Origin: Verrucomicrobiota bacterium
GTDB taxonomy: Bacteria > Verrucomicrobiota > Verrucomicrobiia > Verrucomicrobiales > V1-33
Assembly: GCA_003402705.1 (NCBI GenBank)
Contig: QQNF01000006.1
Span: 1-64,000, forward strand
DNA length: 64,000 bases
Direction of reading: 5' to 3'
This document shows positions 1-57,134 of this stretch, in pieces. Below the pieces are notes generated by a model. That model was given only the letters and a program-made list of their open reading frames with translations. It ran no database searches and was not told the DNA's origin. Within the stretch, counting starts at the first letter, position 1. Each line of letters opens with the position of its first letter. A program made the translations under genes and the position numbers.

Positions 1-365
1 AGCAAAGTGGCACGGGCATCTTGCCTGTGACCTCACCCCACAAGCCACCACAACAACACCCTCCCGGCCTTGTCATCCGCACCAGCCCCCCAATCCCAAC
101 GGGATTGCGCCCCAAAGCCCAAGCAAAGTGGCACGGGCATCTTGCCTGTGACCCCACCCCACAAGCCACCATAACAACACCCTCCCGGCCTTGTCATCCG
201 TACCAGCTCCCCCCCAATCCCAACGGGATTGCGCCCCAAAGCCCAAGCAAAGTGGCACGGGCATCTTGCCTGTGACCTCACCCCACAAGCCACCATAACA
301 ACACCCTCCCGGCCTTGTCATCCGTACCAGCTCCCCACCAATCCCAACGGGATTGCGTCCCCTAG
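1..365. repeat. Three tandem copies of a ~122-bp extragenic repeat
   Basis: Copies begin at 1, 122 and 246 (spacings 121 and 124 bp) and are nearly identical. Each holds a block reading GCACGGGCATCTTGCCTGTG, then a CCACAACAACACCC-like stretch, then ATCCCAACGGGATTGCG, itself a short inverted repeat (ATCCC/GGGAT). Open frames across it are artefacts of the repetition and have no coding character. A single 34-bp match to the first block recurs at 51099-51132, so this is a dispersed family, not a local satellite only. The window starts inside the array, so the true copy number is unknown. Confidence 0.85.
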
Positions 366-645
366 CCCAGGGTTGGACTGCGGCACGCAGGCCTACCCTG
401 GGTCCCCCGCAAAAAAACCCCCAACCCCAAGGGGGTTGCGTCCCCACAGACACTACCCTGACGCTTCACACCGCCCGCAAGAACGATCACCCACCCCTGA
501 CACGATTCCGCCCACCATCCGCCCAACTGACACCGCACCAACCGCCAGCCCCACGCATTTCACGCCATTTTAACACCAATCCCGCTAACCTATCCAACGA
601 TATCCCCTCACTCCACCAACCCGCGAACGTGAATCGCCCGCCGCC
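366..645. other. Intergenic region with a REP-like hairpin upstream of PEP-CTERM genes
   Basis: No gene seen. CCCAGGG at 366-372 pairs with CCCTGGG at 396-402 around a 23-nt loop, followed by a degenerate copy of the CCCCAAGGGGGTTGCG motif near 424-441 that resembles the end of the tandem repeat. The remainder to 645 is C-rich and shows no clear promoter. It probably contains the promoter of the PEP-CTERM pair. Confidence 0.4.
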
Positions 646-1305
646 ATGAAACTCCCCATGATCGCCATCGGATGCCTTCTGGCGGGCACAGGCCCCCAAT
701 TGATGGCCGCTTCCCTGCTCATGGATGATTTCACCGGGCCTGGATTCACCCTAAGCAGCGATCCTCGACTTCCAAGTGGAATCCAAAGTAGAAATGATGC
801 CCCGGTGCCGGCGAATCGCGATGTCCGTGGCTCATTAGGACCTGCATGGATAGTCACTCAGAATCCCACCGAAGGAACGCTCACCTATTCTTTTGACAAG
901 CTGAGGGGCCAGCCAAGCTCGTTCGACTCGTTGGGTTTCATGTACAGCTACGCCAACCGCCTGGCCAGCTTCGTGGGCCTCGACGCCGTTCAGTTGCAAA
1001 TCGACTCCATGGCGGGAACAGGACTCGTCAGCGCCTACGTTATCACTGCCACCACTGTCGATGAATTTAAGGTCGATCTACTGCCGAACACGACCGTCGT
1101 CCCCCTGTTGAATCCGTCAGGTGCGAACCCGATGCAGAATATCGTCGTCCAGATCTACCCAACCACGCCCAACTTCTCGCTGACCCTGTCCAGCTTGTGG
1201 CTCGTCCCAGAGCCAGGGTCCGCGTTACTCGCAGCAACGGCAGCCATCTGGCTGACATCCCGCCGCCGACGAGCACACCAAACCGCAGCCGCGATACCGC
1301 CATGA
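646..1305 (+). CDS. PEP-CTERM sorting-domain protein, copy 1
   Basis: A 219-aa secreted protein of unknown function. The N-terminus is a signal peptide (positive Lys, hydrophobic stretch, cleavage probable after LMAAS near residue 22). The C-terminus has the PEP-CTERM tripartite signal: the motif VPEPGSALL, a hydrophobic helix (LAATAAIWLT) and a basic cluster SRRRR, which exosortase-type enzymes recognise and process during export to the surface or matrix. The middle is Ser/Thr-rich beta-type sequence with no recognised fold. Its stop overlaps the start of the next gene (ATGA at 1302-1305), so the two are translationally coupled. No exosortase gene lies in the window. Confidence 0.8.
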   Translation: MKLPMIAIGCLLAGTGPQLMAASLLMDDFTGPGFTLSSDPRLPSGIQSRNDAPVPANRDVRGSLGPAWIVTQNPTEGTLTYSFDKLRGQPSSFDSLGFMYSYANRLASFVGLDAVQLQIDSMAGTGLVSAYVITATTVDEFKVDLLPNTTVVPLLNPSGANPMQNIVVQIYPTTPNFSLTLSSLWLVPEPGSALLAATAAIWLTSRRRRAHQTAAAIPP

Positions 1306-1934
1306 AACCCACAACGATCGCCATCGGATGCCTTCTGGCGGGCGCAGGCCCCCAATTGATGGCCGCTTCACTGCTCATGGATGATTTCACCGGGCCTGCC
1401 ATACAGCTCGGCAGCAACCCTCCACTTCCCACAGGGCTCCAAAGTGCCAATGATGCACCAGTCCTGGCATTTCGTTGGATACTCAGCATTGGCAATCCCG
1501 TTTGGCTCGTGACACAGGATCCAGCCGCGGGGACCCTTACCTACTCGCTGAATATGCTCAGAGGGCAACCCGGTGCGTCAGATTACTTGAGCATGATCTA
1601 TTCCTATGGGCAGTCACTCGCGAGCATCGTTGGTCTCAACTCGGTGCGATTGACCGTGGATTCGGTGGTCGGCAGCGCCATGGTGGGCGCGGTTGTCGCT
1701 GTCGGTCCCATCATGGAACAGCAGTTCGTTGCACTCGACACTGCCGGGAATATCGACATACCCCTAGTAAAGCCCTCTCTGCCTGACGCCAGCGCGCGCA
1801 TCGTCATCCGCATCTTCCCAACCACCCCCAACTTCTCGCTGACCCTGTCCAGCTTGTGGCTCGTCCCAGAACCCGGGTCCGCGTTGCTCGCAGCAACGGC
1901 AGCCGTCTGGCTGACATCCCGCCGTCGACGTTGA
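1302..1934 (+). CDS. PEP-CTERM sorting-domain protein, copy 2
   Basis: A 210-aa paralogue of the preceding gene. The ATG at 1302 is chosen because it aligns with the first copy's MK...AIGCLLAG signal peptide and overlaps its stop; the frame is open further upstream only because it runs through copy 1. The first ~30 residues (signal peptide and LLMDDFTGP) and the last ~45 (NFSLTLSSLWLVPEPGSALL plus SRRRR) are almost identical to copy 1, while the central ~130 residues are clearly diverged. This is a tandem duplication with conserved ends and a variable core. The function of the exported domain is unknown. Confidence 0.8.
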   Translation: MKPTTIAIGCLLAGAGPQLMAASLLMDDFTGPAIQLGSNPPLPTGLQSANDAPVLAFRWILSIGNPVWLVTQDPAAGTLTYSLNMLRGQPGASDYLSMIYSYGQSLASIVGLNSVRLTVDSVVGSAMVGAVVAVGPIMEQQFVALDTAGNIDIPLVKPSLPDASARIVIRIFPTTPNFSLTLSSLWLVPEPGSALLAATAAVWLTSRRRR

Positions 1935-1944
1935 CAGCCCCCCT

Positions 1945-3123
1945 TCACTGCACCTCGCCCCGCAGTGTCGCCAGTTGCCGTATCGGCACGGCCTCGATCT
2001 TCTCTCCCAGATCAAACCGGCGTTCGCCTGGATGAATCACGAACACCTGCCTCAGCCCGATATCCTGGATGGACTCGAGCATGGATCGAGTGCGCGCCGG
2101 GACAGGGCCCGCCTTGAACTCAAACCCGACAAGACCGCGGGATGTCTCCACCACCATGTCCATCTCGGTCCCGCTTTGGACCCCATAGCAGAAACAACTG
2201 GATGGCTCGAGTTCAAACCCGCGAATGACCTGCTCAATGCAGAACCCCTCCCACGACGCCCCATGCACCGGGTGGCTCATGACAGAGAGCAAATCCCTCA
2301 ACCCCAGCAGCGCATGTAGCAGCCCGGAGTCGCGGTAGTAATACCGCGACGCCTTGCGCAGCCGCTTCGACACGTTGGCAAAGTAGGGCGGCATCTCGCG
2401 CACGATGAACGCAGCCTTCAGCAGTTCCATGTGCCGCTGCACAGTCTTGTGACTAATGCCGAGAGTGCTGGCCACCGCGGAGTCATTCCACGCCTGCCCG
2501 TGATGGTGCGCCACCAGCAGCAGCAGGCGACGCAGTTGATCGCTGGTCAGTCTCGACTCGGCCAACTCGCGCAAATCACGCTCCGCCAGCGAGCGCAGGT
2601 AGTCGAGCCGCCAGCGGTGTGACAGTTGTCTGTCCGCCTGGAGAAATGACCGGGGATAACCACCGGCCCACCATAGCCGCTCCAGACCCGGCTCCAGTTC
2701 CTCCGGAGGCAGTTCATCCAGATGGAATCCGGCCATGTCGATGAAGCTGATGCGCCCGGCCAGCGACTCAGATGCCTCCTTCAGCAGCGCTGGCGAAGCA
2801 CTGCCGAGAATCAGGAATCGCGCCCGGGGCTCCGGGCGGTCGGCCAGCACTCGCAGGGCAGTGAAGAGATGCGGGCGCCGCTGGATCTCATCAATCACGA
2901 CAGTGCCAGTCAGTCGGTCGAGCACCGATTGCGGCCCGGACTCCAACCGCATCAGCGAGACGTCATCCTCCAGATCAAAATAATTCTCCGGCGGCACCCG
3001 CAGCGTCCGGGCCAGCCACGTTTTGCCCGATTGCCTCGGCCCAAGCAATGCCGTCACCGGCGAGGCCCCAAGGGACGCCATCACCTGCTGCTGGAGCCTG
3101 TGTCTGGGGAAAATCGAATTCAT
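1945..3123 (-). CDS. AAA ATPase with C-terminal DUF4143 domain
   Basis: A 392-aa protein of the AAA_14/DUF4143 type. Walker A GPRQSGKT lies near residues 28-35, Walker B VVIDEIQ near 75-81 and sensor-1-like LGSAS near 105. The C-terminal DUF4143 half ends in a PD-(D/E)XK-like pattern (SGTEMDMVVE...VGFEFK). The ATG at 3123 is preferred over upstream in-frame starts because the Walker region then lies at the normal distance and a 14-bp palindrome sits directly upstream. The family is abundant and poorly characterised, often near mobile or defence genes. It is divergent from the STAND gene at 3167 with only 43 bp between, so the two probably share control. Confidence 0.85.
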   Translation of the reverse strand: MNSIFPRHRLQQQVMASLGASPVTALLGPRQSGKTWLARTLRVPPENYFDLEDDVSLMRLESGPQSVLDRLTGTVVIDEIQRRPHLFTALRVLADRPEPRARFLILGSASPALLKEASESLAGRISFIDMAGFHLDELPPEELEPGLERLWWAGGYPRSFLQADRQLSHRWRLDYLRSLAERDLRELAESRLTSDQLRRLLLLVAHHHGQAWNDSAVASTLGISHKTVQRHMELLKAAFIVREMPPYFANVSKRLRKASRYYYRDSGLLHALLGLRDLLSVMSHPVHGASWEGFCIEQVIRGFELEPSSCFCYGVQSGTEMDMVVETSRGLVGFEFKAGPVPARTRSMLESIQDIGLRQVFVIHPGERRFDLGEKIEAVPIRQLATLRGEVQ

Positions 3124-3125
3124 AC

Positions 3126-3160
3126 CTTGCAAATTGGGAGTACTAATCCCAATTTGCAAG
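3126..3160. promoter_or_regulatory. Perfect 14-bp inverted repeat, probable operator
   Basis: CTTGCAAATTGGGA (3126-3139), a 7-nt centre, then TCCCAATTTGCAAG (3147-3160), perfectly palindromic and A+T-rich in a G+C-rich genome. It fills almost all of the 43 bp between two divergent start codons (3123 on -, 3167 on +). Its position fits a shared operator at which either the ATPase or an unlinked regulator controls both genes. A transcribed hairpin would be possible on either strand, but there is no T tract, so a terminator is unlikely. Confidence 0.6.
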
Positions 3161-3166
3161 CATTCT

Positions 3167-6100
3167 ATGCCCGCACTGCACACCCAGCCTGCGCCACCAC
3201 GGCTCCCATTTGAAGCGGAGAGCTTCGGCTGGGAGCATTTCGAGCGCTTTTGTGGAGCGTGGTTCGTCTCCGGCACCAGCCTGCCAAATTTGAACCTCAC
3301 CACCGAAGGTCCGTCCCGCCTGCAAATCACCGACGCGATGCGCTACGGCCCCGGAGGCGCAAAACAGCGCGGCATCGACATCCTCGCCACCATGGAGAAC
3401 GGCGCCACATGGGTCGTGCAGTGCAAGCACATGTCCAATTTCACCCGAGGCAAGGCGCAAGCCGCCATCACCAAGGCCGTGCAGGAATCCGGCTCACGCC
3501 AGCCCGCACGCTGGCTGCTCTGGGTCACCGGAACGGTCTCTACCGATGCGATCGATCTCGTGCAGGAGAACTACCCGGACTGGACCCTGTGGGACGGCGA
3601 ACGATTATCGCAGGAATTCCTCCTCCACACGCCCCGACGACAATCGTTCCAAATCATTGAGAGCATCTTCGGCACAGAGTGGGCCAAGGCATTCTTCCCG
3701 CTGCCGGACAACCTGCTGATCACTGCCGAGGAATTCTTCGGACGCTGGTCAGGCGAAGAACGGCTTTTCCATCATCGCACGGAATTTGTTGGCCGGAAGG
3801 ATTTGTTGGACCGCGTGACAGCGTTCGGTCATGGCGGCAAGGGCTCGAAGGCACTCATCCTCTCCGCTGCGGGTGGCATCGGCAAAACACGCCTGCTCCG
3901 CGCTGCCGCAGAGCGCATCGCCACCGAAGCCCCCGGCCGTGTCGTGCGATTCACCAATCCCGAAGCCCCGCAGGCCGAGCCGCCTCGCTACGAAGACGCC
4001 GCGACGCTTACCGTTTTCCACGACGACGCCCACCGGATCGAAACCGTGCCACCCTCGCTCCTCGGAGTCATGGCCAAAGCACAAGCCAGCGGCGCGCGAC
4101 TCATCCTCGCCACCCGCCCTGGGGCCGAAGATGCCCTGCGGGAACTCCTCATGCGCAGCGGTTGGCAATCGCAGGACATTGAAACCGCCTCAGTCAAAAA
4201 GCTCACGGAAGCCGAAAGGGTAGAACTCGCCGCCCGCTGTCTCGACGACACCCATCCCGACGCCGTGCGCCCGCTGGCTCAGATCTCAGAAGGATGCGCC
4301 CTCATCACGATCGTCGGCGCTGAACTCCTGCGCCGCGGCGACCTGACAAACCTTGATCTCGTCCGCAGCGACCACTTCCGCACGGAAGTCTTTCACCGCT
4401 TTGAAGGCCAGGAACTGGATCGCATCCGCGGCAGTCTCGACCGCCCACTCATGGAAAAGCTCCTGCGCTCCATCGCGCTGCTTTCACCGTGGCCCGGCAG
4501 CGACTCCGCCACCGCGCAGACAATGGCCGACTTCCTCGGCATCCAGCGCGGTCAGGTGGATGCTGCTTGCGATTCCCTTCTCGCCGGTGGCCTGCTCGTC
4601 CGAACCCGCGACGGCTATCGCATCACGCCAGACTTGTTTTCCGATCATCTCGCCTACGCCGCCTGCTATGATGCCGCCGGAAATACGACCACCTTCGTCG
4701 GTCCCTTCCTCGACCAGTTTGCCGAAGCACACTCGCAAACCGTCCTGAAAAACCTCGCCGAAGCCGAATGGCGCGCGCTGCAACAACACGGCAGCGAAGC
4801 CGCCTCCGTCGTCGCGCCTGTCTGGAACCGGTTCCTCGAGGACTTCACCAAGGCGTCCTTCTGGCAGCGTTCCCTCATGCTCGATCACTGGACAAAGTTT
4901 GCGTTCTACCAGCCGGAGCGATCTTTGGAACTCGCCGGCTGGGCAATGGATCTCGCAACAGCCCCGCCAGACAGGTTCACTTCAGAGTACGATAAACACT
5001 CCACCCTGCTGGAAAAAATCCCGGCGCTGCTCACCCCAGTCGCCATCTGGTCCGACGACTATCGCAATCAGGCTCTCGATCTGCTCTGGCGGCTTCGGCG
5101 TGACTTTCCGTGGACGGAACGCAGCGATGAAAATTCCGGCTACAGCCCCTTCGCCACGATCGCCAGCTTCAAGCACAACTTCCCCAAGGCCACCAATGGC
5201 GTCCTCGACTGGCTGGAGCGCCTCCTCGCCGGTCCCGAGGCCGCCCTCGCCGCAGACCGCCCGTCGTCATTCATCGAGACCGTCTTCGGCCCCTGCTTTG
5301 TCCGGTGCATCGAACAGAACTACATGCAGGACCGGCGAACCTTCGTCCTCAGTAACATCCCGGTCTCCGTCTCCAAAACGAAAGCCGTCCGTCAGCGCGC
5401 GTTCCGCATTCTTACCGAACAAATCATCCCGCGGGGCACCGTCGCTGCCATCAATTCCCTGCCAGCATTAGGCAAAATGCTCCATCAGCCAGCCTGGCAG
5501 TGCGAACTGAGCCCAGCTGAAGTCAAAGCATGGCTGCCGGAACAAAGGCAGGCATTGCAGGCGATTCGGGAAGTCGGTGACCGTTATCGGCATCCGCTGG
5601 TGCATCATCGCATCCGGCGCCTGCTCGCATGGCAAATCGTCTACGGGAAGCATGAAGAATTTCAGCCTGCCTGCATAGACATCGTCAACACGCTTCCGGA
5701 CACGTTGGAACTTCGGCTTGCCCGGCTCACGCTTTCCTACTGCCACGAAGACTGTTTGGGTGTCCATCGAGAAGTCAGTATTCCAGATAGACTGGAACGG
5801 GAGAAAATCCAATGGGCTGAACTTGCCGAGTCAGTCGCCATCCGGATCTTGGCAGACTATTCCAGCGTGGAAGGTATTCATGACCGCCTTGCCCACTGGG
5901 ACAGCCTCTGCCACGAATATGGCAGCAGTCCGCAACTGAGCCATCTGCTCGTAGAGATCGCGCAACAAGAGCCCCAGCGTGCGTTTGCACTCCTGGATCT
6001 GATTCATGCGACCCCAGGTTCCGTGTTGGAACATGATGCCGCAGTGCTGGTAGGTAGAACGGAAGGCGAACCTTCCTCTGCTCAGGAACAGGCCGTTCTT

Positions 6101-7141
6101 CTCGGGCTGGCGTCAGCGAATCCAACAATTGTGTGCAGCTTCTTGCACGCAGTAAAGTTTCGAAAGGATCTGAAGACGGACCGAATACTTGAAGCAGCTA
6201 TTCTCCTCGCAGGAAATGCAGAAGGACCCGTACTCGGATCGTTGATCGGCATGATCGAGTTCTCGCTCAGCCCACCAATGGCGACACGACTGATCCACGC
6301 CATACTACAGCGGACCATCTCAGACCCGGAAGCCACTCACCTATCCATCGCCGCCTGTCGTTGGGCGAGCTTTACGAAGGATGCTGAGATGCACCCTGAA
6401 ACCGCAGCGGCAATTCTCAATCGACTTCAACAATCGCAACACCTTAAAGCCAGCGATTTTGCGCCGGGATTCATTCACCTCGCAGCCGAGCGGTTTCCCC
6501 GACTCTTGTTTGAAATGTTTTACCGTCGCCTTGAACGTGCGGAAGCGCAGGACGATTCAGATTCATCAGACTTTACCCCTCTCCCTTACTACCCTGAACT
6601 GGCGCTGCGGGGACTGGAACAGGAGCCGGATTTCGAGAACCTTGCCCGTGACCTGCTCAAGCGGGTGCAGTCCGCACGGTCCGCCCAAGCACGCGATGCA
6701 TGGGAACGCCTCTTCACAATGTCCGTGGGAAAGATCAGCCCACTGCTGGAGCCATTGCTTCTGGAATGGCTGCCTAAGATCAACGATGTCGAAGAACTCG
6801 CAAATCTGATCGAACTGACCAAATTCGAAAGCTCCCTCGTCATTTTTCGGTTCCCTGCGCTTACGGAAGCAATCCTGCGCAAAGCCAAACAGTTTGGACC
6901 GAAGGCACTGAACCGGATCACGTGGGCACTCATCCACGGTGCCGGACCGCAGGGGCGCGGCTACACCAATGGCGAACTGAACCCCGAGTACCGCTACTTG
7001 CGCGAAGAATCCGAAAAGGCCGTCCGACTCCACGAGACAAACCCGGTTCTCCGCCCCTTCTTTGAGACCGTGCGGGAGAACGAAGTCCGGGACGAGCGGC
7101 TCCACCGAACGCTAATGGAAGTTGACCCAGAAGACTGGTGA
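3167..7141 (+). CDS. Mrr-like nuclease / STAND NTPase, Avs-like defence candidate
   Basis: A 1324-aa three-part protein. Residues 15-160 resemble an Mrr-type restriction endonuclease: GID at 69-71 followed by WVVQCK at 82-87 gives the D...QxK active site of the PD-(D/E)XK fold. After FVGR (207-210) comes a STAND-type P-loop NTPase with Walker A AAGGIGKT at 234-241 and Walker B-like TVFHDD at 282-287. The remaining ~850 residues are helical and Leu/Ala-rich, as in TPR/HEAT-type sensor regions. This order matches Avs (antiviral STAND) proteins, which sense phage proteins and then cut DNA; whether this one does so is inference. ATG 3167 is chosen because earlier in-frame starts would run through the palindrome and the divergent gene. 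Base composition is balanced, unlike the core. Confidence 0.75.
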   Translation: MPALHTQPAPPRLPFEAESFGWEHFERFCGAWFVSGTSLPNLNLTTEGPSRLQITDAMRYGPGGAKQRGIDILATMENGATWVVQCKHMSNFTRGKAQAAITKAVQESGSRQPARWLLWVTGTVSTDAIDLVQENYPDWTLWDGERLSQEFLLHTPRRQSFQIIESIFGTEWAKAFFPLPDNLLITAEEFFGRWSGEERLFHHRTEFVGRKDLLDRVTAFGHGGKGSKALILSAAGGIGKTRLLRAAAERIATEAPGRVVRFTNPEAPQAEPPRYEDAATLTVFHDDAHRIETVPPSLLGVMAKAQASGARLILATRPGAEDALRELLMRSGWQSQDIETASVKKLTEAERVELAARCLDDTHPDAVRPLAQISEGCALITIVGAELLRRGDLTNLDLVRSDHFRTEVFHRFEGQELDRIRGSLDRPLMEKLLRSIALLSPWPGSDSATAQTMADFLGIQRGQVDAACDSLLAGGLLVRTRDGYRITPDLFSDHLAYAACYDAAGNTTTFVGPFLDQFAEAHSQTVLKNLAEAEWRALQQHGSEAASVVAPVWNRFLEDFTKASFWQRSLMLDHWTKFAFYQPERSLELAGWAMDLATAPPDRFTSEYDKHSTLLEKIPALLTPVAIWSDDYRNQALDLLWRLRRDFPWTERSDENSGYSPFATIASFKHNFPKATNGVLDWLERLLAGPEAALAADRPSSFIETVFGPCFVRCIEQNYMQDRRTFVLSNIPVSVSKTKAVRQRAFRILTEQIIPRGTVAAINSLPALGKMLHQPAWQCELSPAEVKAWLPEQRQALQAIREVGDRYRHPLVHHRIRRLLAWQIVYGKHEEFQPACIDIVNTLPDTLELRLARLTLSYCHEDCLGVHREVSIPDRLEREKIQWAELAESVAIRILADYSSVEGIHDRLAHWDSLCHEYGSSPQLSHLLVEIAQQEPQRAFALLDLIHATPGSVLEHDAAVLVGRTEGEPSSAQEQAVLLGLASANPTIVCSFLHAVKFRKDLKTDRILEAAILLAGNAEGPVLGSLIGMIEFSLSPPMATRLIHAILQRTISDPEATHLSIAACRWASFTKDAEMHPETAAAILNRLQQSQHLKASDFAPGFIHLAAERFPRLLFEMFYRRLERAEAQDDSDSSDFTPLPYYPELALRGLEQEPDFENLARDLLKRVQSARSAQARDAWERLFTMSVGKISPLLEPLLLEWLPKINDVEELANLIELTKFESSLVIFRFPALTEAILRKAKQFGPKALNRITWALIHGAGPQGRGYTNGELNPEYRYLREESEKAVRLHETNPVLRPFFETVRENEVRDERLHRTLMEVDPEDW

Positions 7142-7308
7142 CATCGCGTTGCTAGCAGCACATCACCTCAGGTGTCCAGCCCTCGCAGCAATCAAACTGA
7201 AAGCTCTCGCCAATTTCCCCTGCCACGCCGCGCCACGGATCCCAAGGATCGAGGCCGTAATTCCAGCGACGCTACCACTTTGCTTCCCAGAGGTGCCGCA
7301 TCACCCGT

Positions 7309-7929
7309 CTACGGCTCACCGCGCCACACCACCCGAAACTCTAATCCGGTCCAGCCGCGCCACAGGTATTCCTGCAAAAAGGATCGCCAGTCTTCCGGCA
7401 CTGAGCCTTCGGGAGGACTGGCCGCTTCCGGCGGTCCGCCAATCGCGGGAGTCAATTCTGAATCTCTCGCCTGCACGAATAACTGATTCGGGCATTCAGC
7501 AATGGCGAACAGAGCGCAACTGCCGGGAAGGCGGTGCCGTAAGAACTTCGGACTTCCTACCGTCCCATCACCGGCGATGCACGACCGGTCCAGCGAATTG
7601 AAAACACCGCGTGCAGGCAGGTGCCAAATGGTGAATTCCTCCAATGCCGTTCTCACGGAGAGAAGCTCGCCATTCTCAAGGTAAAGCTCCAGTCCAGATG
7701 AGGCCGACAACTCCGAGCGGAAAGCCAGCATGCCGGGAAAGCCCTCCACCTTCAGAAAATCCGTTCCTGCATTGCCCACCACCACGGCATCAGGCACACT
7801 CCAATCACACTCAACTTCCAAGCCCTCAGCCGCACGTTCAAGCAAGGCCCGGGCTGTCCCGTCCTCAACGGTCAACACATCCGCATCGGCAGACAGTGTG
7901 ATGCCAACAACGTTAATCGCGGAATTCAT
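7309..7929 (-). CDS. Hypothetical protein, second gene of a two-gene unit
   Basis: About 206 aa from ATG 7929 (MNSAINVVG). No family recognised. Visible: a beta-strand-rich acidic N-terminal half (GITLSADADVLTVEDG), no signal peptide and no membrane segment. It lies 8 bp downstream of the gene at 7938-8546 on the same strand, so the two are co-transcribed. Small acidic cytosolic proteins in such pairs are often immunity proteins of polymorphic toxin systems, but no toxin is present here, so that remains a guess. Confidence 0.55.
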   Translation of the reverse strand: MNSAINVVGITLSADADVLTVEDGTARALLERAAEGLEVECDWSVPDAVVVGNAGTDFLKVEGFPGMLAFRSELSASSGLELYLENGELLSVRTALEEFTIWHLPARGVFNSLDRSCIAGDGTVGSPKFLRHRLPGSCALFAIAECPNQLFVQARDSELTPAIGGPPEAASPPEGSVPEDWRSFLQEYLWRGWTGLEFRVVWRGEP

Positions 7930-7937
7930 GGCTGCGC

Positions 7938-8546
7938 TTACATGTAGGCTTTCTCCGCCTCGATGAGCTTCAGGCCAGTATAGCCCTGCTTGCGATACCA
8001 CTGGACGAAATCCCTCTCCGGAGGAAGATCAGGGCTATGCACGGCGAAAACCCCCACAGTATATTCGGGTATAGTGAACAGGCCGCCATCCGGCAGACGA
8101 TCATCGTGGAATGCAATCTTGGAAATGGCATAGCCCCATCTCCGCTCAGATCGCTCCAAGTCCACCAATCCTTCCTTCCGTGACGGAAGCAACGGGTTGA
8201 ATGAGTAAATCAACTTCCCTGAGTCGGCGATCTCCATCGGCAACAATTCTCCCGCGACCTCCAATAGTTCGCGCATAATTACATCGCAGTAAACTTTCTC
8301 GGATATGGCAAAACGTCCGGCGAGCGGTGCATTCATGAAATCCGAGGCCGGTAATCGCGGGCTACGGACAAATGCTGCAAATCCCCCAAACCAAGGCGAC
8401 ACCGACTCCAAGTTTCTGCACGCTTCGAACCACCGACGATGCACCGGACTGGAATCGGACTCGGGCATGTCCGGCAAGTAGTCCTGAAACCTAGTATCAA
8501 TGATATCAGCACGATAAGCTCGTTTCATATTTTTTCTTAGCATCAT
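7938..8546 (-). CDS. Hypothetical protein, possible Imm11/DUF1629-type immunity protein
   Basis: About 202 aa. The arrangement of an N-terminal strand region, a middle with AISEKVYCDVIM and a C-terminal end FVQWYRKQGYTGLKLIEAE resembles the DUF1629/Imm11 group, in which a buried aromatic core ends with a GL-phi-F/I motif. This is a weak resemblance by eye. Three starts are possible (ATG 8546, 8543 and 8528); the last has an A-rich AAGAAAAAAT leader. It is co-directional with the 7309-7929 gene. Codon use is less C/G-extreme than in the core genes to the right, in line with an accessory region. Confidence 0.5.
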   Translation of the reverse strand: MMLRKNMKRAYRADIIDTRFQDYLPDMPESDSSPVHRRWFEACRNLESVSPWFGGFAAFVRSPRLPASDFMNAPLAGRFAISEKVYCDVIMRELLEVAGELLPMEIADSGKLIYSFNPLLPSRKEGLVDLERSERRWGYAISKIAFHDDRLPDGGLFTIPEYTVGVFAVHSPDLPPERDFVQWYRKQGYTGLKLIEAEKAYM

Positions 8547-8735
8547 TCATCCCACCACCGGACACCGGGGAATTGAGAGTTGGGATCACTTACTTCGGCA
8601 GCGATTATCTGAAGTTCATCGCGCAAGTCCATCCCTTGGGCCGCCGCCGCTTCAAGCCTATCGACAATCGCAACCGCACACTCGTTATAATGAATCCTGC
8701 TGTGTGGAGGCCCCCCATTCCCCTACTCCCCCCCC

Positions 8736-51589: not shown

Positions 51590-54500
51590 TCAATGGCGGT
51601 TCGAATCCTTATGCCGGAGCAATTCAAGAATCGTTCTGCTCCGCTGGTCCGAGAGCTGGGCTTTAGCGGTGTCGGCGAGCAAGGCATCCACCGCAGCGGC
51701 CCAAGGTTGCCAGCATGCTCGGGAGGCCGCGACGCGCAGCACAGCCGCCGCGGCCTCCAATTCGCCGCGGGCGTGCATCCGGCGCAGCAGGGCGGCCAGC
51801 CGCTGGCGGCTACTCCACAGGAAAGCCTCATTTCCTGTTTTGGGCTCCTGCACCCACGCAGGGAATGCAGTAGCAATGGCTGGCCATCCGTGAGCCCACG
51901 CCTCCACCGCCATGCCAGCTAGCAGGGTGCCGGGGTGGGACGGGTCCACCTTCCCGGCCTCATCTGCCCAGCGCCGGGCCTCCTCGACATTCCCGGAGCT
52001 CCGCAGAGCAACCCAAGCCATGCCGCGCTGCGCAGCGCCGCTGGTTCTATCGAGCGCGAGGGCACGCTGGAATGCCGCAATCGCCTCCACCCATCTTCCC
52101 GCCTCCTGGAAGAGCGCGCCTAGGCCAAGGTGAGGCTGGGCTGATTTCGGATTAAGTTCGATGGCACGGCGGTAGGCCTCTTCGGCTTTCGCGGGCTCTC
52201 CAAGGTAATCCTTGTAAAGACCGCCCAGGCCATAGTGCGGAAAGGCGTTTTCTGGATTGAGTTCGATGGCGCGGCGGTAGGCCTCTTCGGCTTTCGCGGG
52301 CTCTCCAAGGTAATCCTCGTAAAGACTGCCCAAGCCACAGTGCGGGAGGTCAATTTTCGGATTGAGTTCGATGGCGCGGCGGTAGGACGCTTCGGCTTTC
52401 GCGGGCGCCCCGAGGCGATCCCGGTAAAGATTGCCCAAGTCATAGTGCGGGAAGGCGTTTTCCGGATCGAGTTCGATGGCGCGGCGGTAGGCCTCTTCGG
52501 CTTTCGCGGGCTCTCCAAGGTAATCCTCATAAAGCCTCCCCAAGCCACAGTGCGGGAGTCCTAATTTCGGATCGAGTTCGATGGCGCGGCGGTAGGATGC
52601 TTCGGCCTTCGTGGGCTCCCCGATGTGATCCCGGTAAAGGTTGCCAAGGCAATGGTGCAGGACGGCGTTTTCCGGATCGAGTTCGATGGCCCGGCGGCAG
52701 GACGCTTCGGCTTTCGCGGGCTCCCCGAGGTGATCACGGTAAAGATTGCCCAAGTCATAGTGCGGGAAGGCGTTTTCCGGATCGAGTTCGATGGCGCGGC
52801 GGTAGGCCTCTTCAGCTTTCGCGGGCTCTCCGAGGTGATCACGGTAAAGATTTCCCAGGCCATGGTGCGGGGCGGCGTTTTCCGGATCGAGTTCGATGGC
52901 GCGGCGATAGGCCTCTTCGGCTTTCGCGGGCTCCCCGAGGTGATCACGGTAGAGATTTCCCAGGCCATGGTGCGGGGCGGCGTTTTCCGGATCGAGTTCG
53001 ATGGCCCGGCGGTAGGCCTCTTCGGCTTTCGCGGGCTCCTCGAGGTGATCACGGTAAAGACTGACCAAGCAATAGTGCGGAAAGGCATTTCCTGGATCGA
53101 GTTCGATGGCCCGGCGGTAGGCCTCTTCGGCTTTCGCGGGCTCTCCAAGGTAATCCTCGTAAAGACTGCCCAAGCCACAGTGCGGGAGGTCTAATTTCGG
53201 ATCGAGTTCGATGGCGCGGCGGTAGGCCTCTTCGGCTTTCGCGAGCTCCCCAAGGTGATCCCGGTAAAGATTGCCCAGACCATTGTGCGGGAGGGCGTTT
53301 TTCGGATCAAGTTCGATGGCGCGGCGGTAGGCCTCTTCGGCTTTCTCGGGCTCCCCGAGGTGATCCCGGTAAAGATTGCCTAGGCCATGGTGCGGGGCGG
53401 CGTTTTTCGGATCAAGTTCGATGGCGCGGCGGTAGGCCACCTCGGCTTTCTCGGGCTCCCCGTGGTGATACTGGTAAAGATTACCCAGGCCATGGTGCGG
53501 GAAGGCGTTTTCCGAATCGAGTTCGATGGCGCGGCGGTAGGCCTCTTCGGCTTTCGCGGGCTCCCCGAGGTGATCCAAGTAAAGATTGCCCAAGCCATTG
53601 TGCGGAGCGGCAGCTCTCGGTTCGAGTTCGGTGGCGCGGCGGTAGGCCCCTTCGGCTTTCGCGTGCTCCCCGAGGTGATACTGGTAGAGATTGCCTAGGC
53701 CATGGTGCGGGAATCCGTTTTCCGGATCAAGTTCGATGGCGCGGCGGTAGGCCTCTTCGGCTTTCGCGGGCTCCCCGAGGTGCTCAGCGTAAATATTCGC
53801 GACGTTGTTCCATGCAACGGAGGCCAAATGGCCTAGAGCGATGGCGCGCTCGTAGGCCAATGCCGACAGGAATGGCGGGTGATTGCGGTTAGCATTCGAG
53901 GGGGAAAAGGGATCTAGCCCATGTGCAATTTCGAAAAACGCCTCGCCTGCGGCGATGGAGATTGGGAGGAGGTCGATGGTGAAATGAGCGACGGCAGTCT
54001 CCAGATGGCGGTGGGCCGCAAGCAGCGTCTCGGGCTGTGCTGTGCTGGAGATGCCGGTGGTACCGGAGAGCAGCGAGAGGGCGGCCGATTCCTCTGCGGA
54101 CCACATCGGGCGGGCGGTGTCGCAGGAACGCCGCAACCAGGGGAGTATGATTTGCATGCTAGGGCTCTCATCGAAATCCCGCGGCCAAAGGGCGCGGGCG
54201 GCGGCATTGGCGGGACCGGCGAGCGGGAGTTCTCTTAGGAGGGACTCGAGCGGGAGCGAGTCCACTTCATACACCCGGGCGAGACAGAGCACTCTGGCAG
54301 CATCGGCCGTGATGGCATCGCCCTCGTCCCATGAGCGGAGATTCAACTCGGCAATGGTGCGGGTGACGCGCTCTGCCGGGGTCGGGTTTTCGAACTCTCC
54401 ACCCGCGATGGTGAAGCAACAACGCAGGCCGGAGAGCACGTCAGTAAAGCAGTCTGGGCGCTCGTCTTCGCTGCGCCAGAAGCGCCGGAGGTAGCTGCGC

Positions 54501-56944
54501 ACACTGGGATGGAGGTCGCCATCCGAAACGAGGGAGTAGCGGCGGGCGAGTTCCCGCAGGCGCTCCCTCGCCGGCTTGGGATTCCAATGGAGGCGGAGCA
54601 GGCCGGTGTCTACGCCCGGAAGAATCGCAAGGGCCACAATATCGCGCAAGTCCTCCGCCCGCTCGGGGTGGTCAACCAGATTGAGCAGAAACCGGCGGCA
54701 GACTTGGCCGACGGCATGTCGGATGGCCTCGCGCTCTGCGAGCGGCACATCGTCATCTGCTGGGGCTGTAAGGGAAGTTAGTAAGGAGTCGCCATCTCGG
54801 TGCAGGTCCAGCAGGCCGCGCACGGCGAGAGGCACGCCGAGGGTGATGCGGTGCAGGCTTTCGGCGAGAGTCCCTAGGTCGCCCTCCACTGGCGGGGCGA
54901 GTAGGCCAAGTGCGAAAGTAATCTCCGAAACCGTGAACCGCAAGTTTTCCCCGAAATCCTCCACTCGGAGCACTGCCTGCGGAATTTCAACACGCCAGCC
55001 ATGCTTGGTAGCTGGCGGCTGATGGAGATCCGGCCTTAGCCGGCTGCCGACGAGGACGAGCAACGGGAGGGGCTCGCGGAAGAGGGGGGCGAGGAGTTCC
55101 CGCAGCCAATTGTCGAGGTCATCTGAGAGTACCTCGCAGGTATCCAGCAGCAGGATGAGGGGGTGGCGCTCCATGGCAGCGCGCAGAACGGCCCGCAGCC
55201 CCTCCGCGCGCTCGCGGTGGGGGCAGATGACGGGGCCGTCGGTAAGGCCCGTCTCCCGGCACCATGCGGCGAAGAGTTCGCGATGCCTCCGAGGATCACG
55301 GCGCAGGGTGTCTATGTGTTTCGTTCTCCTGCCCAAGTCATCGTGCCACTGCCCTCCAGCGGTGAGGAGTTGGAGGAGCACGGAGTCTGTGCGCCCGCCG
55401 TCGGTGGTGGCCAACTGGAGCTGGGACTCGAATTTGTCCATCGTGGCGCGGTGCTCCTTAGCCGACGCTCGGACGCGGGCTTCTGCCAGCCAGTAGGGAT
55501 CGGCCACCTCCATGCCCAGCTGCTGGGCCAGGCGGATCGCGAGGACACGGAAAAGTTCCTCCGGGCTGCGCGGCTCGCCGGTAAGCGGAGCCCGCCAGTC
55601 GCCTTTGTCCCAGTCCACAAGGAGTGGGCGGACTTCCGGGTGTGCGTCCTGAGCCAGGCATCGGACGCGGTGGAGGAACCAGCTCTTCCCCATGCCGCCA
55701 AACCCGTGAGCCCATATCAGCCGAATGCCGCGGCTGCCCGCGTCAGCATTGCCAGTCCGGAAGCGGCTCATGAGCCCCTCTACGGCGTCCACGCCCAGTC
55801 CGAGCTGGGACTCGCGCCCGATGAAGCTACCAGCGGTCTCCGGATAAAAGTCATCCGGCGGCGGCGGAAGACTCTCCGGGCGGCAGGGCTGTAGCGTGGA
55901 TGATACTGGGGCAGGCGGAGCTGCCACAGGAAGGTCTCCGACTTTTTTGAGCTTCGACCGGTCAAACTTGAGTGCGCCCATCCGACAGCGCTGCTGATAC
56001 TCAGGGAGCCCCAGGGTCGCGACGAAGCGGGTGCAGTCTCTGATCTCAAGTTCGATCCAGTTCGTCCAGTCCGTTGCGAGCTGGTACGCCGCAGCGGTCG
56101 TTGCGCCGCCGCGGGCAATGTCAAACGTACCGCCGACTTCGATGACGTCAGAGGTGCAGTTCCTCACTTGGAGGAGGTTTTCCTTGCGCCAGTGCGCCTC
56201 CGATAACGGATTGAGCGGGCGCAGGTAGGACCAGACCAAGGTCGAGATGCGTTTCTCGCCGAGGTCCAGAAGGTCTCCCAGACGTAGAAGGGCCGCAAGG
56301 AAACGGAGATTGACCGGGTCCTCCCCGATCTCGTGGGGATCGAGAGCTTCATCATTCAGCACCCGGGAACGGTCCCACGAGTGCGCGACAGCAACATGGA
56401 CAAGCGGCTCAATGAACTTCTCACCGATCAGAACTCGGAGGCTGGAGCCGGCAGGAGAGGCGTCTGTGAGCACGAATGAGCCCAAGCGGCCCGGATGCTG
56501 AAGGCGGAACCAGTCCGCGGCCAATTGGCGCAGTCCCATTTCACCCATCCATTTCCTCGCGTCGTCGCCCAGGTCCTCTTTTACCTGCTTCCACTTATCT
56601 GCATTCTCAGAGCTTGCCCAATTGGTGAAGTCGGAATCCTTGGGTAGGCCGAGCACTTCTTCCTTTGGCCCCCACATACCGGAATCGTGGAGGAGAACGG
56701 CAAGCAGAAGCAGATAAAGTTCGGTGCCATTGAGCACACACGAATCCGGGAGAAGCTGGCCGATCCTGTGAGCTACCCGGCAGGAATGCAGCAGGTCGTG
56801 GTCTGTAAAGTCTTCTGCGCCGATGGGCCGCGTGTGCCCGAGCAACGGCTTAACATGGTCGTGCACAGCAATTAGCTTCCCGTGCAGGCCCCTGTTTTTC
56901 GTCCCGAGTCGTCTTACAAGTTCTAGGGAATGCCAGTCATCCAT
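51590..56944 (-). CDS. HD domain-STAND NTPase-TPR protein, conflict-system candidate
   Basis: 1784 aa. Residues ~40-240 form an HD-type hydrolase domain: FTDHD (His49-Asp50), LLHDSG (His86-Asp87), VAHSW (His188) and LLRLGDLLDL (Asp224), the spacing of HD phosphohydrolases used as effectors. After FIGRE (~374) comes a STAND NTPase with Walker A GFGGMGKS (414-421) and Walker B LILLLDTCE (596-604), then a winged-helix region. Residues ~1040-1600 are 16 near-identical 35-residue TPRs, followed by diverged TPR-like helices. ATG 56944 (MDDWHSLEL) is chosen because sequence upstream to 57124 is Arg/Pro-rich and unlike a fold. It lies 190 bp downstream of the CHAT/STAND gene on the same strand. Confidence 0.8.
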   Translation of the reverse strand: MDDWHSLELVRRLGTKNRGLHGKLIAVHDHVKPLLGHTRPIGAEDFTDHDLLHSCRVAHRIGQLLPDSCVLNGTELYLLLLAVLLHDSGMWGPKEEVLGLPKDSDFTNWASSENADKWKQVKEDLGDDARKWMGEMGLRQLAADWFRLQHPGRLGSFVLTDASPAGSSLRVLIGEKFIEPLVHVAVAHSWDRSRVLNDEALDPHEIGEDPVNLRFLAALLRLGDLLDLGEKRISTLVWSYLRPLNPLSEAHWRKENLLQVRNCTSDVIEVGGTFDIARGGATTAAAYQLATDWTNWIELEIRDCTRFVATLGLPEYQQRCRMGALKFDRSKLKKVGDLPVAAPPAPVSSTLQPCRPESLPPPPDDFYPETAGSFIGRESQLGLGVDAVEGLMSRFRTGNADAGSRGIRLIWAHGFGGMGKSWFLHRVRCLAQDAHPEVRPLLVDWDKGDWRAPLTGEPRSPEELFRVLAIRLAQQLGMEVADPYWLAEARVRASAKEHRATMDKFESQLQLATTDGGRTDSVLLQLLTAGGQWHDDLGRRTKHIDTLRRDPRRHRELFAAWCRETGLTDGPVICPHRERAEGLRAVLRAAMERHPLILLLDTCEVLSDDLDNWLRELLAPLFREPLPLLVLVGSRLRPDLHQPPATKHGWRVEIPQAVLRVEDFGENLRFTVSEITFALGLLAPPVEGDLGTLAESLHRITLGVPLAVRGLLDLHRDGDSLLTSLTAPADDDVPLAEREAIRHAVGQVCRRFLLNLVDHPERAEDLRDIVALAILPGVDTGLLRLHWNPKPARERLRELARRYSLVSDGDLHPSVRSYLRRFWRSEDERPDCFTDVLSGLRCCFTIAGGEFENPTPAERVTRTIAELNLRSWDEGDAITADAARVLCLARVYEVDSLPLESLLRELPLAGPANAAARALWPRDFDESPSMQIILPWLRRSCDTARPMWSAEESAALSLLSGTTGISSTAQPETLLAAHRHLETAVAHFTIDLLPISIAAGEAFFEIAHGLDPFSPSNANRNHPPFLSALAYERAIALGHLASVAWNNVANIYAEHLGEPAKAEEAYRRAIELDPENGFPHHGLGNLYQYHLGEHAKAEGAYRRATELEPRAAAPHNGLGNLYLDHLGEPAKAEEAYRRAIELDSENAFPHHGLGNLYQYHHGEPEKAEVAYRRAIELDPKNAAPHHGLGNLYRDHLGEPEKAEEAYRRAIELDPKNALPHNGLGNLYRDHLGELAKAEEAYRRAIELDPKLDLPHCGLGSLYEDYLGEPAKAEEAYRRAIELDPGNAFPHYCLVSLYRDHLEEPAKAEEAYRRAIELDPENAAPHHGLGNLYRDHLGEPAKAEEAYRRAIELDPENAAPHHGLGNLYRDHLGEPAKAEEAYRRAIELDPENAFPHYDLGNLYRDHLGEPAKAEASCRRAIELDPENAVLHHCLGNLYRDHIGEPTKAEASYRRAIELDPKLGLPHCGLGRLYEDYLGEPAKAEEAYRRAIELDPENAFPHYDLGNLYRDRLGAPAKAEASYRRAIELNPKIDLPHCGLGSLYEDYLGEPAKAEEAYRRAIELNPENAFPHYGLGGLYKDYLGEPAKAEEAYRRAIELNPKSAQPHLGLGALFQEAGRWVEAIAAFQRALALDRTSGAAQRGMAWVALRSSGNVEEARRWADEAGKVDPSHPGTLLAGMAVEAWAHGWPAIATAFPAWVQEPKTGNEAFLWSSRQRLAALLRRMHARGELEAAAAVLRVAASRACWQPWAAAVDALLADTAKAQLSDQRSRTILELLRHKDSNRH
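52156..53835 (-). repeat. Sixteen 105-bp near-identical TPR-coding repeats
   Basis: GTTCGATGGC-type anchors recur at exact 105-bp spacing (52156, 52261, 52366, 52471 and so on to 53731), 16 units, encoding YRRAIELDPENAAPHHGLGN with GEPAKAEEA before it. Length variation between units is nil; substitutions concentrate at the DPxxAxPH positions. Identity at DNA level, including synonymous sites, indicates recent expansion or gene conversion. Confidence 0.92.
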
Positions 56945-57134
56945 AAAGAAGTCAGATAGTTGTGTCCGGGAGGCATTACAGAGGCGCACAAGAGCACCGG
57001 CACGACGGAGGCGAGCAGAAGTACGGGGGTTGTGGCGAAGCGGAGGCGGAGTTCGCGCATGGCTGACGACTGGACTAGCGTACGGCGTCGCGGGCGTCCA
57101 CAGACTTTCCAGAGGTCTGGCCAACCTGCGGCGT

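What the first reader, a model, noticed from the sequence alone, without database searches (positions are those of the whole stretch)
3167..7141. Mrr-nuclease STAND protein, Avs-like
N-terminal GID...VQCK nuclease core, a central P-loop and an ~850-residue helical C-terminus copy the plan of antiviral STAND proteins, but at 1324 aa and without clear TPR consensus it may represent a separate subgroup with a different ligand.
Basis: partly seen in the sequence, partly recalled or inferred. Interest (0 to 1): 0.65.

Follow-up and report, generated by a model that had tools for sequence, protein, structure and literature searches.

The report
Immune-type nuclease with paired ATPase regulator
A bacterial gene for a large, Avs-like immune sensor carrying a DNA-cutting domain is locked head-to-head, across a 43-base gap filled by a palindrome, to a very common but functionally unexplained defence-candidate ATPase (PDC-S01), which suggests the two work as one controlled system.

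Summary
The ORF is real: 3167-7141 (+), 1324 aa, ATG start. Its Mrr nuclease core (D71, Q85-C86-K87), P-loop (K240) and Walker B are invariant across 10 homologues. AlphaFold2 gives an Mrr domain, a STAND NTPase with winged helix, and an alpha-solenoid. The N-terminal half matches Avs3, Apaf-1 and Avs4 best in the PDB. No Avs sequence model matches, and the solenoid resembles HEAT/ARM rather than TPR proteins. It is an Avs-like sensor nuclease, outside Avs1-5 by sequence.

Gene 1945-3123 (-), an AAA_14-HTH-DUF4143 ATPase (PADLOC candidate PDC-S01), starts 43 bp away, and a perfect 14-bp inverted repeat fills the gap. This head-to-head pair recurs in 17 distinct loci. Paired ATPases form essentially one clade and co-diverge with their STANDs (Mantel r = 0.91). 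The palindrome also sits at the start of unpaired PDC-S01 genes, so it belongs to the ATPase. STAND relatives in other phyla instead carry a fused HTH.

Best reading: phage-sensing STAND nuclease, probably kept in check by a palindrome-binding PDC-S01 protein. Sensing, cutting and repression are inferred. A sister genome lost the pair at this site and carries a TIR conflict module there.

The parts
3167..7141 (+). Mrr-STAND gene, 1324 aa, ATG start
   Evidence: 91% identical full-length copy in a same-genus genome and 22-53% identical full-length homologues
3209..3631 (+). Mrr-type PD-(D/E)XK nuclease domain, about residues 15-155; active-site D71 (3377-3379), Q85-C86-K87 (3419-3427)
   Evidence: residues invariant; alpha-beta-beta-beta-alpha-beta core in the model; Mrr_cat/Mrr_cat_2 matches
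3779..4201 (+). STAND NTPase core, about residues 205-345; Walker A GGIGK (K240 at 3884-3886), Walker B DDAHR 286-290, R317-P318
   Evidence: nSTAND_NTPase5 and AAA_16; invariant residues; PDB matches Avs3, Apaf-1, Avs4, NLRP3
4442..4666 (+). winged-helix region, about residues 426-500 (H447-457, H461-474, E477-479, E484-486), with conserved R485 and P488-D489-L490..D493
4667..7138 (+). C-terminal alpha-solenoid, residues 501-1324, about 40 helices with one beta hairpin (residues 714-732)
   Evidence: AlphaFold2 pLDDT 87.3, pTM 0.75; HEAT/ARM-type nearest folds
5731..6229 (+). diversified patch of the solenoid, residues 855-1021: 113 of 499 bases differ from the same-genus allele against 131 of 3473 elsewhere
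1945..3123 (-). divergent partner: AAA_14 - HTH - DUF4143 (COG1373) ATPase, 392 aa; PADLOC candidate family PDC-S01
   Evidence: DUF4143 E=7e-36, AAA_14 E=3e-20; PDC-S01 E=1e-78; conserved head-to-head
2107..2583 (-). DUF4143 domain of the partner, with E320, D322, E335, K337 (PD-(D/E)XK-type set), invariant in all 16 paired copies examined; includes the HTH segment (about 2389-2550)
3126..3160 (.). perfect 14-bp inverted repeat CTTGCAAATTGGGA-7-TCCCAATTTGCAAG filling the 43-bp gap between the two start codons; the exact motif is unique in the genome
   Evidence: equivalents in other pairs and at unpaired COG1373 starts

Best explanation
This is a two-gene immune-type module. The STAND protein is a single-chain sensor and effector. 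The HEAT-like solenoid binds an invader-derived protein, ATP-dependent oligomerisation through the NTPase and winged-helix core brings the N-terminal Mrr nucleases together, and these cut DNA, as in Avs1-4. The divergent PDC-S01/COG1373 protein (AAA ATPase, HTH, PD-(D/E)XK-like domain) most likely binds the palindrome that overlaps both start regions, and so limits its own expression and that of the dangerous nuclease. Shown: architecture, invariant active sites, fold, conserved head-to-head pairing, palindrome, co-divergence, and loss and replacement at the locus. Inferred: ligand sensing, oligomerisation, cutting, and repression by the partner.
For: Invariant nuclease and NTPase residues. 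Confident fold, with Avs3/Apaf-1/Avs4 on top for residues 1-620. Divergent COG1373 in 17 distinct loci, although strong matches to this COG1373 profile occur in only 67 of 286 genomes of the class. Paired COG1373s lie in one starred branch of 16 paired and 1 unpaired, and distances co-vary with STAND (Mantel r=0.91, 0 of 10,000 permutations). The palindrome recurs between the start codons (sum score 140 against shuffles 77, max 93) and at 26 further COG1373 starts (15 of 26 score >=10 against 0.8% of control windows). The partner contains an HTH, and relatives in other phyla that lack the partner carry a fused XRE-type HTH. Patchy distribution and gene turnover fit defence. The solenoid has a diversified patch while the NTPase core and COG1373 are under strong constraint.
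Against: No wet data. Avs matches are at fold level only (TM-scores 0.23-0.27 normalised by query). Four Verrucomicrobiota STANDs have no adjacent COG1373 (L059, L017, L019/L066, L022), so the partner is not strictly required. The palindrome is weak in some pairs (L065, L064, L060). HTH family matches of the partner are below Pfam cut-offs, and no operator binding is known. Most COG1373 copies have no STAND beside them.
Confidence: 0.6

Rival explanations
1. The two proteins act together after translation: the PDC-S01 ATPase is a co-effector, second nuclease or inhibitor (antitoxin-like) of the STAND protein, and the palindrome only regulates both genes.
For: The partner's Walker and E320/D322/E335/K337 residues are invariant in all 16 paired copies, so it is probably an active enzyme. 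Strong co-divergence fits physical contact as well as operator recognition. PADLOC lists it as a defence candidate.
Against: The same active residues and palindrome occur in COG1373 copies without a STAND. Some STANDs lack the partner. Distant STANDs carry a DNA-binding HTH instead of an ATPase.
Confidence: 0.25
2. The pairing is only a shared bidirectional promoter: STAND genes settled beside a self-regulated COG1373 gene and are carried along without functional coupling.
For: COG1373 carries the palindrome with or without STAND. In several pairs each palindrome arm reads as a -35-like hexamer one way and a -10-like hexamer the other way at 16-18 bp spacing.
Against: Single-clade, co-diverging partnership across several Verrucomicrobiota families and classes, with the start-to-start gap held mostly at 36-50 bp. 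Neutral linkage would be expected to break more often.
Confidence: 0.15
3. The STAND protein is not an immune protein but a housekeeping DNA-repair or signalling ATPase.
For: Mrr-type and STAND domains also occur outside defence; this is general knowledge and no specific support was found here.
Against: Present in 11 of 142 relatives, reduced to scraps and accompanied by a TIR/MoxR/FGE module at the same site in a sister genome, relatives on plasmids next to AAA ATPase, helicase and HEPN genes, and a diversified solenoid patch.
Confidence: 0.05

Closest known systems
Avs1-Avs4 (AVAST nuclease-STAND phage sensors)
   Same: N-terminal nuclease, central STAND NTPase with winged helix, long alpha-helical C-terminal sensor; Avs3 and Avs4 are top PDB fold matches
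   Different: no sequence-level match to Avs models or PDB chains; HEAT/ARM-like rather than TPR solenoid; divergent PDC-S01 partner; ligand unknown
PDC-S01 (COG1373, AAA_14-DUF4143), PADLOC phage-defence candidate
   Same: the partner gene matches PDC-S01 at E=1e-78; AAA ATPase fused to a PD-(D/E)XK-type domain, as described in PMC12988326
   Different: listed as a single-gene candidate, with experimental validation pending for most such candidates; here it is half of a divergent pair and carries a palindrome at its start
HTH-Mrr-STAND proteins of other phyla (for example on a Rhizobium etli plasmid, WP_080711102.1)
   Same: homologous along the NTPase and solenoid
   Different: carry an XRE-type HTH fused at the N-terminus; no COG1373 pair was seen at the loci examined
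Apaf-1 / NLRP3 and other NLR-type STAND switches
   Same: NTPase plus winged-helix plan by Foldseek
   Different: different effector and sensor domains; bacterial
Self-controlled defence operons with a dedicated regulator (for example CapW/BrxR; from general knowledge, not tested here)
   Same: idea of a DNA-binding protein encoded next to and limiting a toxic defence gene
   Different: the candidate regulator here is an AAA-HTH-nuclease-like protein, not a WYL or XRE protein

Membership tests
Avs1-Avs4 (AVAST) | N-terminal nuclease domain with catalytic residues | tested here: met
   D71, Q85-C86-K87 invariant; nuclease fold in the model
Avs1-Avs4 (AVAST) | STAND NTPase with Walker A/B and winged helix | tested here: met
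Avs1-Avs4 (AVAST) | sequence match to Avs family models or solved Avs chains | tested here: not met
   PADLOC: only weak LmuA and PDC-M58A hits on the nuclease part; no Avs chain by phmmer or profile
Avs1-Avs4 (AVAST) | TPR-type C-terminal sensor | tested here: not met
   no TPR family hit; HEAT/ARM solenoids nearest
Avs1-Avs4 (AVAST) | activation by phage terminase or portal, or another phage protein | not testable with these tools
   ligands as described in PMC12931631; needs co-expression
Avs5 | Sir2 effector and nSTAND3 NTPase | tested here: not met
   effector is Mrr-type and the best NTPase model is nSTAND_NTPase5; definition
nSTAND_NTPase5 (Pfam PF25199) | score over the curated cut-off | tested here: inconclusive
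   25.3 bits against a cut-off of 34; best family member 30.1
PDC-S01 (partner gene) | PADLOC PDC-S01 HMM match over full length | tested here: met
   E=9.6e-79, residues 1-386 of 392
PDC-S01 (partner gene) | acts as a single-gene antiviral system | not testable with these tools
   experimental validation pending for most PDCs according to PMC12988326

The most novel reading that the evidence does not exclude
PDC-S01/COG1373 proteins, counted as one of the most common 'defence systems' in prokaryotes, are in this clade not stand-alone effectors. They are ATP-dependent DNA-binding regulators that sit on a palindrome at their own start. In Verrucomicrobiota one lineage has been recruited as the dedicated, co-evolving switch of a new HEAT-solenoid Mrr-STAND immune family, taking the place of an HTH domain that other phyla fuse to the same protein.
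Probability: 0.35. Interest if true: 0.75.

Novelty: new variant of a known kind. Interest (0 to 1): 0.6.

Why it matters
PDC-S01 is reported as the fourth most common defence entry across prokaryotes, with experimental validation pending for most such candidates (PMC12988326). A fixed genetic partner, a conserved palindrome at its start and a Rosetta-stone-like swap with a fused HTH give a directly testable hypothesis for what it does. The STAND family adds an Avs-like nuclease whose sensor arm is HEAT-like and, in one close pair of alleles, locally diversified, so its ligand can be mapped.

Tried and rejected
Avs membership by sequence: rejected. Palindrome as a STAND-specific element: rejected, because it occurs at unpaired COG1373 starts. 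Palindrome explained wholly as two face-to-face sigma-70 promoters: suggestive in L061, L062 and L018, but the window's own copy scores poorly (6-7 of 12) and unpaired genes keep the palindrome, so it is left as inference. Phage origin: no match in phage records, none in viral contigs with the single protein, and one HTH-fused relative with the profile. Phylum-wide profile hits at E 1e-3 to 1e-8 match only short Mrr or P-loop stretches and were not counted. L068 is cut by its contig end and was not counted for or against pairing. No paper on DUF4143 or COG1373 function was found.

Full report
WHAT IS THERE. The ORF at 3167-7141 (+) encodes 1324 aa. On the single sequence the family matches are weak: nSTAND_NTPase5 E=1.5e-5, AAA_16 E=3e-4 and Mrr_cat_2 E=0.018, all below cut-off. 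Homologues make the case firm. Eleven of 142 related genomes have a match. A profile of ten sequences found 22 loci in the genome collection and two more full-length copies in the class. Across ten aligned proteins (22-91% identity) the invariant columns include D71, Q85-C86-K87, G237/G239/K240, D287-A288-H289-R290, R317-P318 and P488-D489-L490..D493.

FOLD. AlphaFold2 on residues 1-620 with 21 homologues gives pLDDT 87.3 and pTM 0.76: an Mrr-like core at about 15-155, an NTPase at about 205-345, then a helical and winged-helix region, and the first solenoid helices. Its best PDB matches are Avs3 (E=2e-8), Apaf-1, Avs4 (E=5e-7) and the NLRP3 NACHT domain. TM-scores are low because inter-domain placement differs, so this is a match of plan, not a superposition. 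Residues 440-1324 give pLDDT 87.3: about 40 helices forming a solenoid with one beta hairpin. The nearest solved structures are CRM1, CAND1, cohesin SA2 and karyopherins, that is HEAT/ARM solenoids, at E of 1e-4 and worse. No TPR family matched. No Avs model and no Avs PDB chain matched by sequence.

THE MISSED HALF. On the other strand, 1945-3123 encodes a 392-aa AAA_14-HTH-DUF4143 protein (COG1373). PADLOC files it as PDC-S01, a phage-defence candidate (E=1e-78). PMC12988326 reports PDC-S01 as the fourth most common defence entry in prokaryotes, an ATPase fused to a PD-(D/E)XK domain, and says that validation is pending for most such candidates. The two start codons are 43 bp apart, and the gap holds CTTGCAAATTGGGA-7-TCCCAATTTGCAAG, a perfect 14-bp inverted repeat at 3126-3160. 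The exact motif occurs once in the genome.

CONSERVATION OF THE PAIR. The same head-to-head arrangement is found at 17 distinct loci, counting the window and its same-genus copy once. The start-to-start gap is 36-65 bp, mostly 36-50. Two of the 17 (G515, G597) were found from the ATPase side. Strong matches to the ATPase profile occur in only 67 of 286 genomes of the class, so this adjacency cannot be chance. Four Verrucomicrobiota STANDs lack the neighbour (L059, L017, L019/L066, L022). In the ATPase tree, one starred branch holds all 16 paired copies tested plus one unpaired copy. Pairwise distances of the two proteins correlate at r=0.91 over 15 pairs, with 0 of 10,000 permutations as high. 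Much of this could reflect shared descent with the host, but it does show that the pair has stayed together.

THE PALINDROME. Over the 15 gaps tested, the summed inverted-repeat score is 140, against a mean of 77 and a maximum of 93 in 300 dinucleotide shuffles, though three or four single gaps are not above chance. The element is not special to STAND pairs. Among 26 further COG1373 starts in the class (two of them also paired), 15 score at least 10, against 0.8% of 2215 control windows from the same loci, with the common form CTTGAAAAT...ATTTTCAAG just before the start. It is therefore a feature of the ATPase gene, and the simplest reading is an operator for self-control that the divergent STAND gene shares. 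In some pairs each arm also reads as a -35-like hexamer one way and a -10-like hexamer the other way; this is suggestive only.

AN INDEPENDENT HINT. Distant relatives from Chloroflexota, Rhodocyclaceae and two Patescibacteria-type lineages have an XRE-type HTH (PF13560/PF01381, over cut-off) fused in front of the Mrr domain and form one clade. A Rhizobium etli plasmid relative is annotated as an HTH protein and sits among AAA ATPase, helicase and HEPN genes. A viral-contig relative begins with a similar HTH-like sequence. A DNA-binding module thus appears either fused to the protein or in the divergent ATPase, which supports a regulatory role for the partner.

GENE TURNOVER AND DIVERSIFICATION. 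The same-genus genome G001 has the pair at the same place. G003 has the same flanks, but the pair is reduced to three scraps matching window 1936-2189, 2671-2730 and 3129-3226. In that interval lie a TIR protein, a MoxR-like ATPase and two FGE-sulfatase-domain proteins. Against the G001 allele, residues 855-1021 of the STAND solenoid differ at 113 of 499 bases, compared with 131 of 3473 elsewhere. dS rises there as well, so an imported allele segment is likelier than selection alone. dN/dS is about 0.1 in the NTPase core and 0.10 in the ATPase partner.

VERDICT. The new content is the pair: an Avs-like nuclease-STAND outside the known Avs sequence families, fixed head-to-head with a PDC-S01 ATPase across a palindrome. 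Immune function, ligand and repression by the partner remain inference.

Noticed in passing
L136 (G003:C100) 1617-8711: At the same chromosomal site in a same-genus genome, a TIR_2 protein, an AAA_5/MoxR-like ATPase and two FGE-sulfatase-domain proteins (989 and 464 aa) occupy the interval where the pair has been reduced to scraps; looks like another conflict module.
   Followed up: partly
window 51590-60116 (-): An 1844-aa HD-CE + TPR protein followed by a 993-aa AAA_16 + MalT-type TPR protein: a second, unrelated STAND-type or conflict-type gene pair on the same contig.
   Followed up: no
G000:C6:64396-65520, just beyond the window: A second, more distant COG1373/DUF4143 gene on the same contig, without a STAND neighbour.
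   Followed up: partly
window 1-450: A dispersed repeat with more than 60 similar stretches in this genome and its relatives G001 and G003, but none in G002.
   Followed up: no
window 646-1934: Two tandem paralogous genes that look like PEP-CTERM-type surface proteins just upstream of the ATPase partner; only one copy is seen at the G003 site.
   Followed up: no
L074, L075 (Acidobacteriota): Relatives of the NTPase and solenoid whose roughly 250-300-residue N-terminus matched no Mrr or HTH family: possibly a different effector on the same sensor chassis.
   Followed up: no
L161 (G602): Two COG1373-like genes in divergent orientation about 160 bp apart.
   Followed up: no
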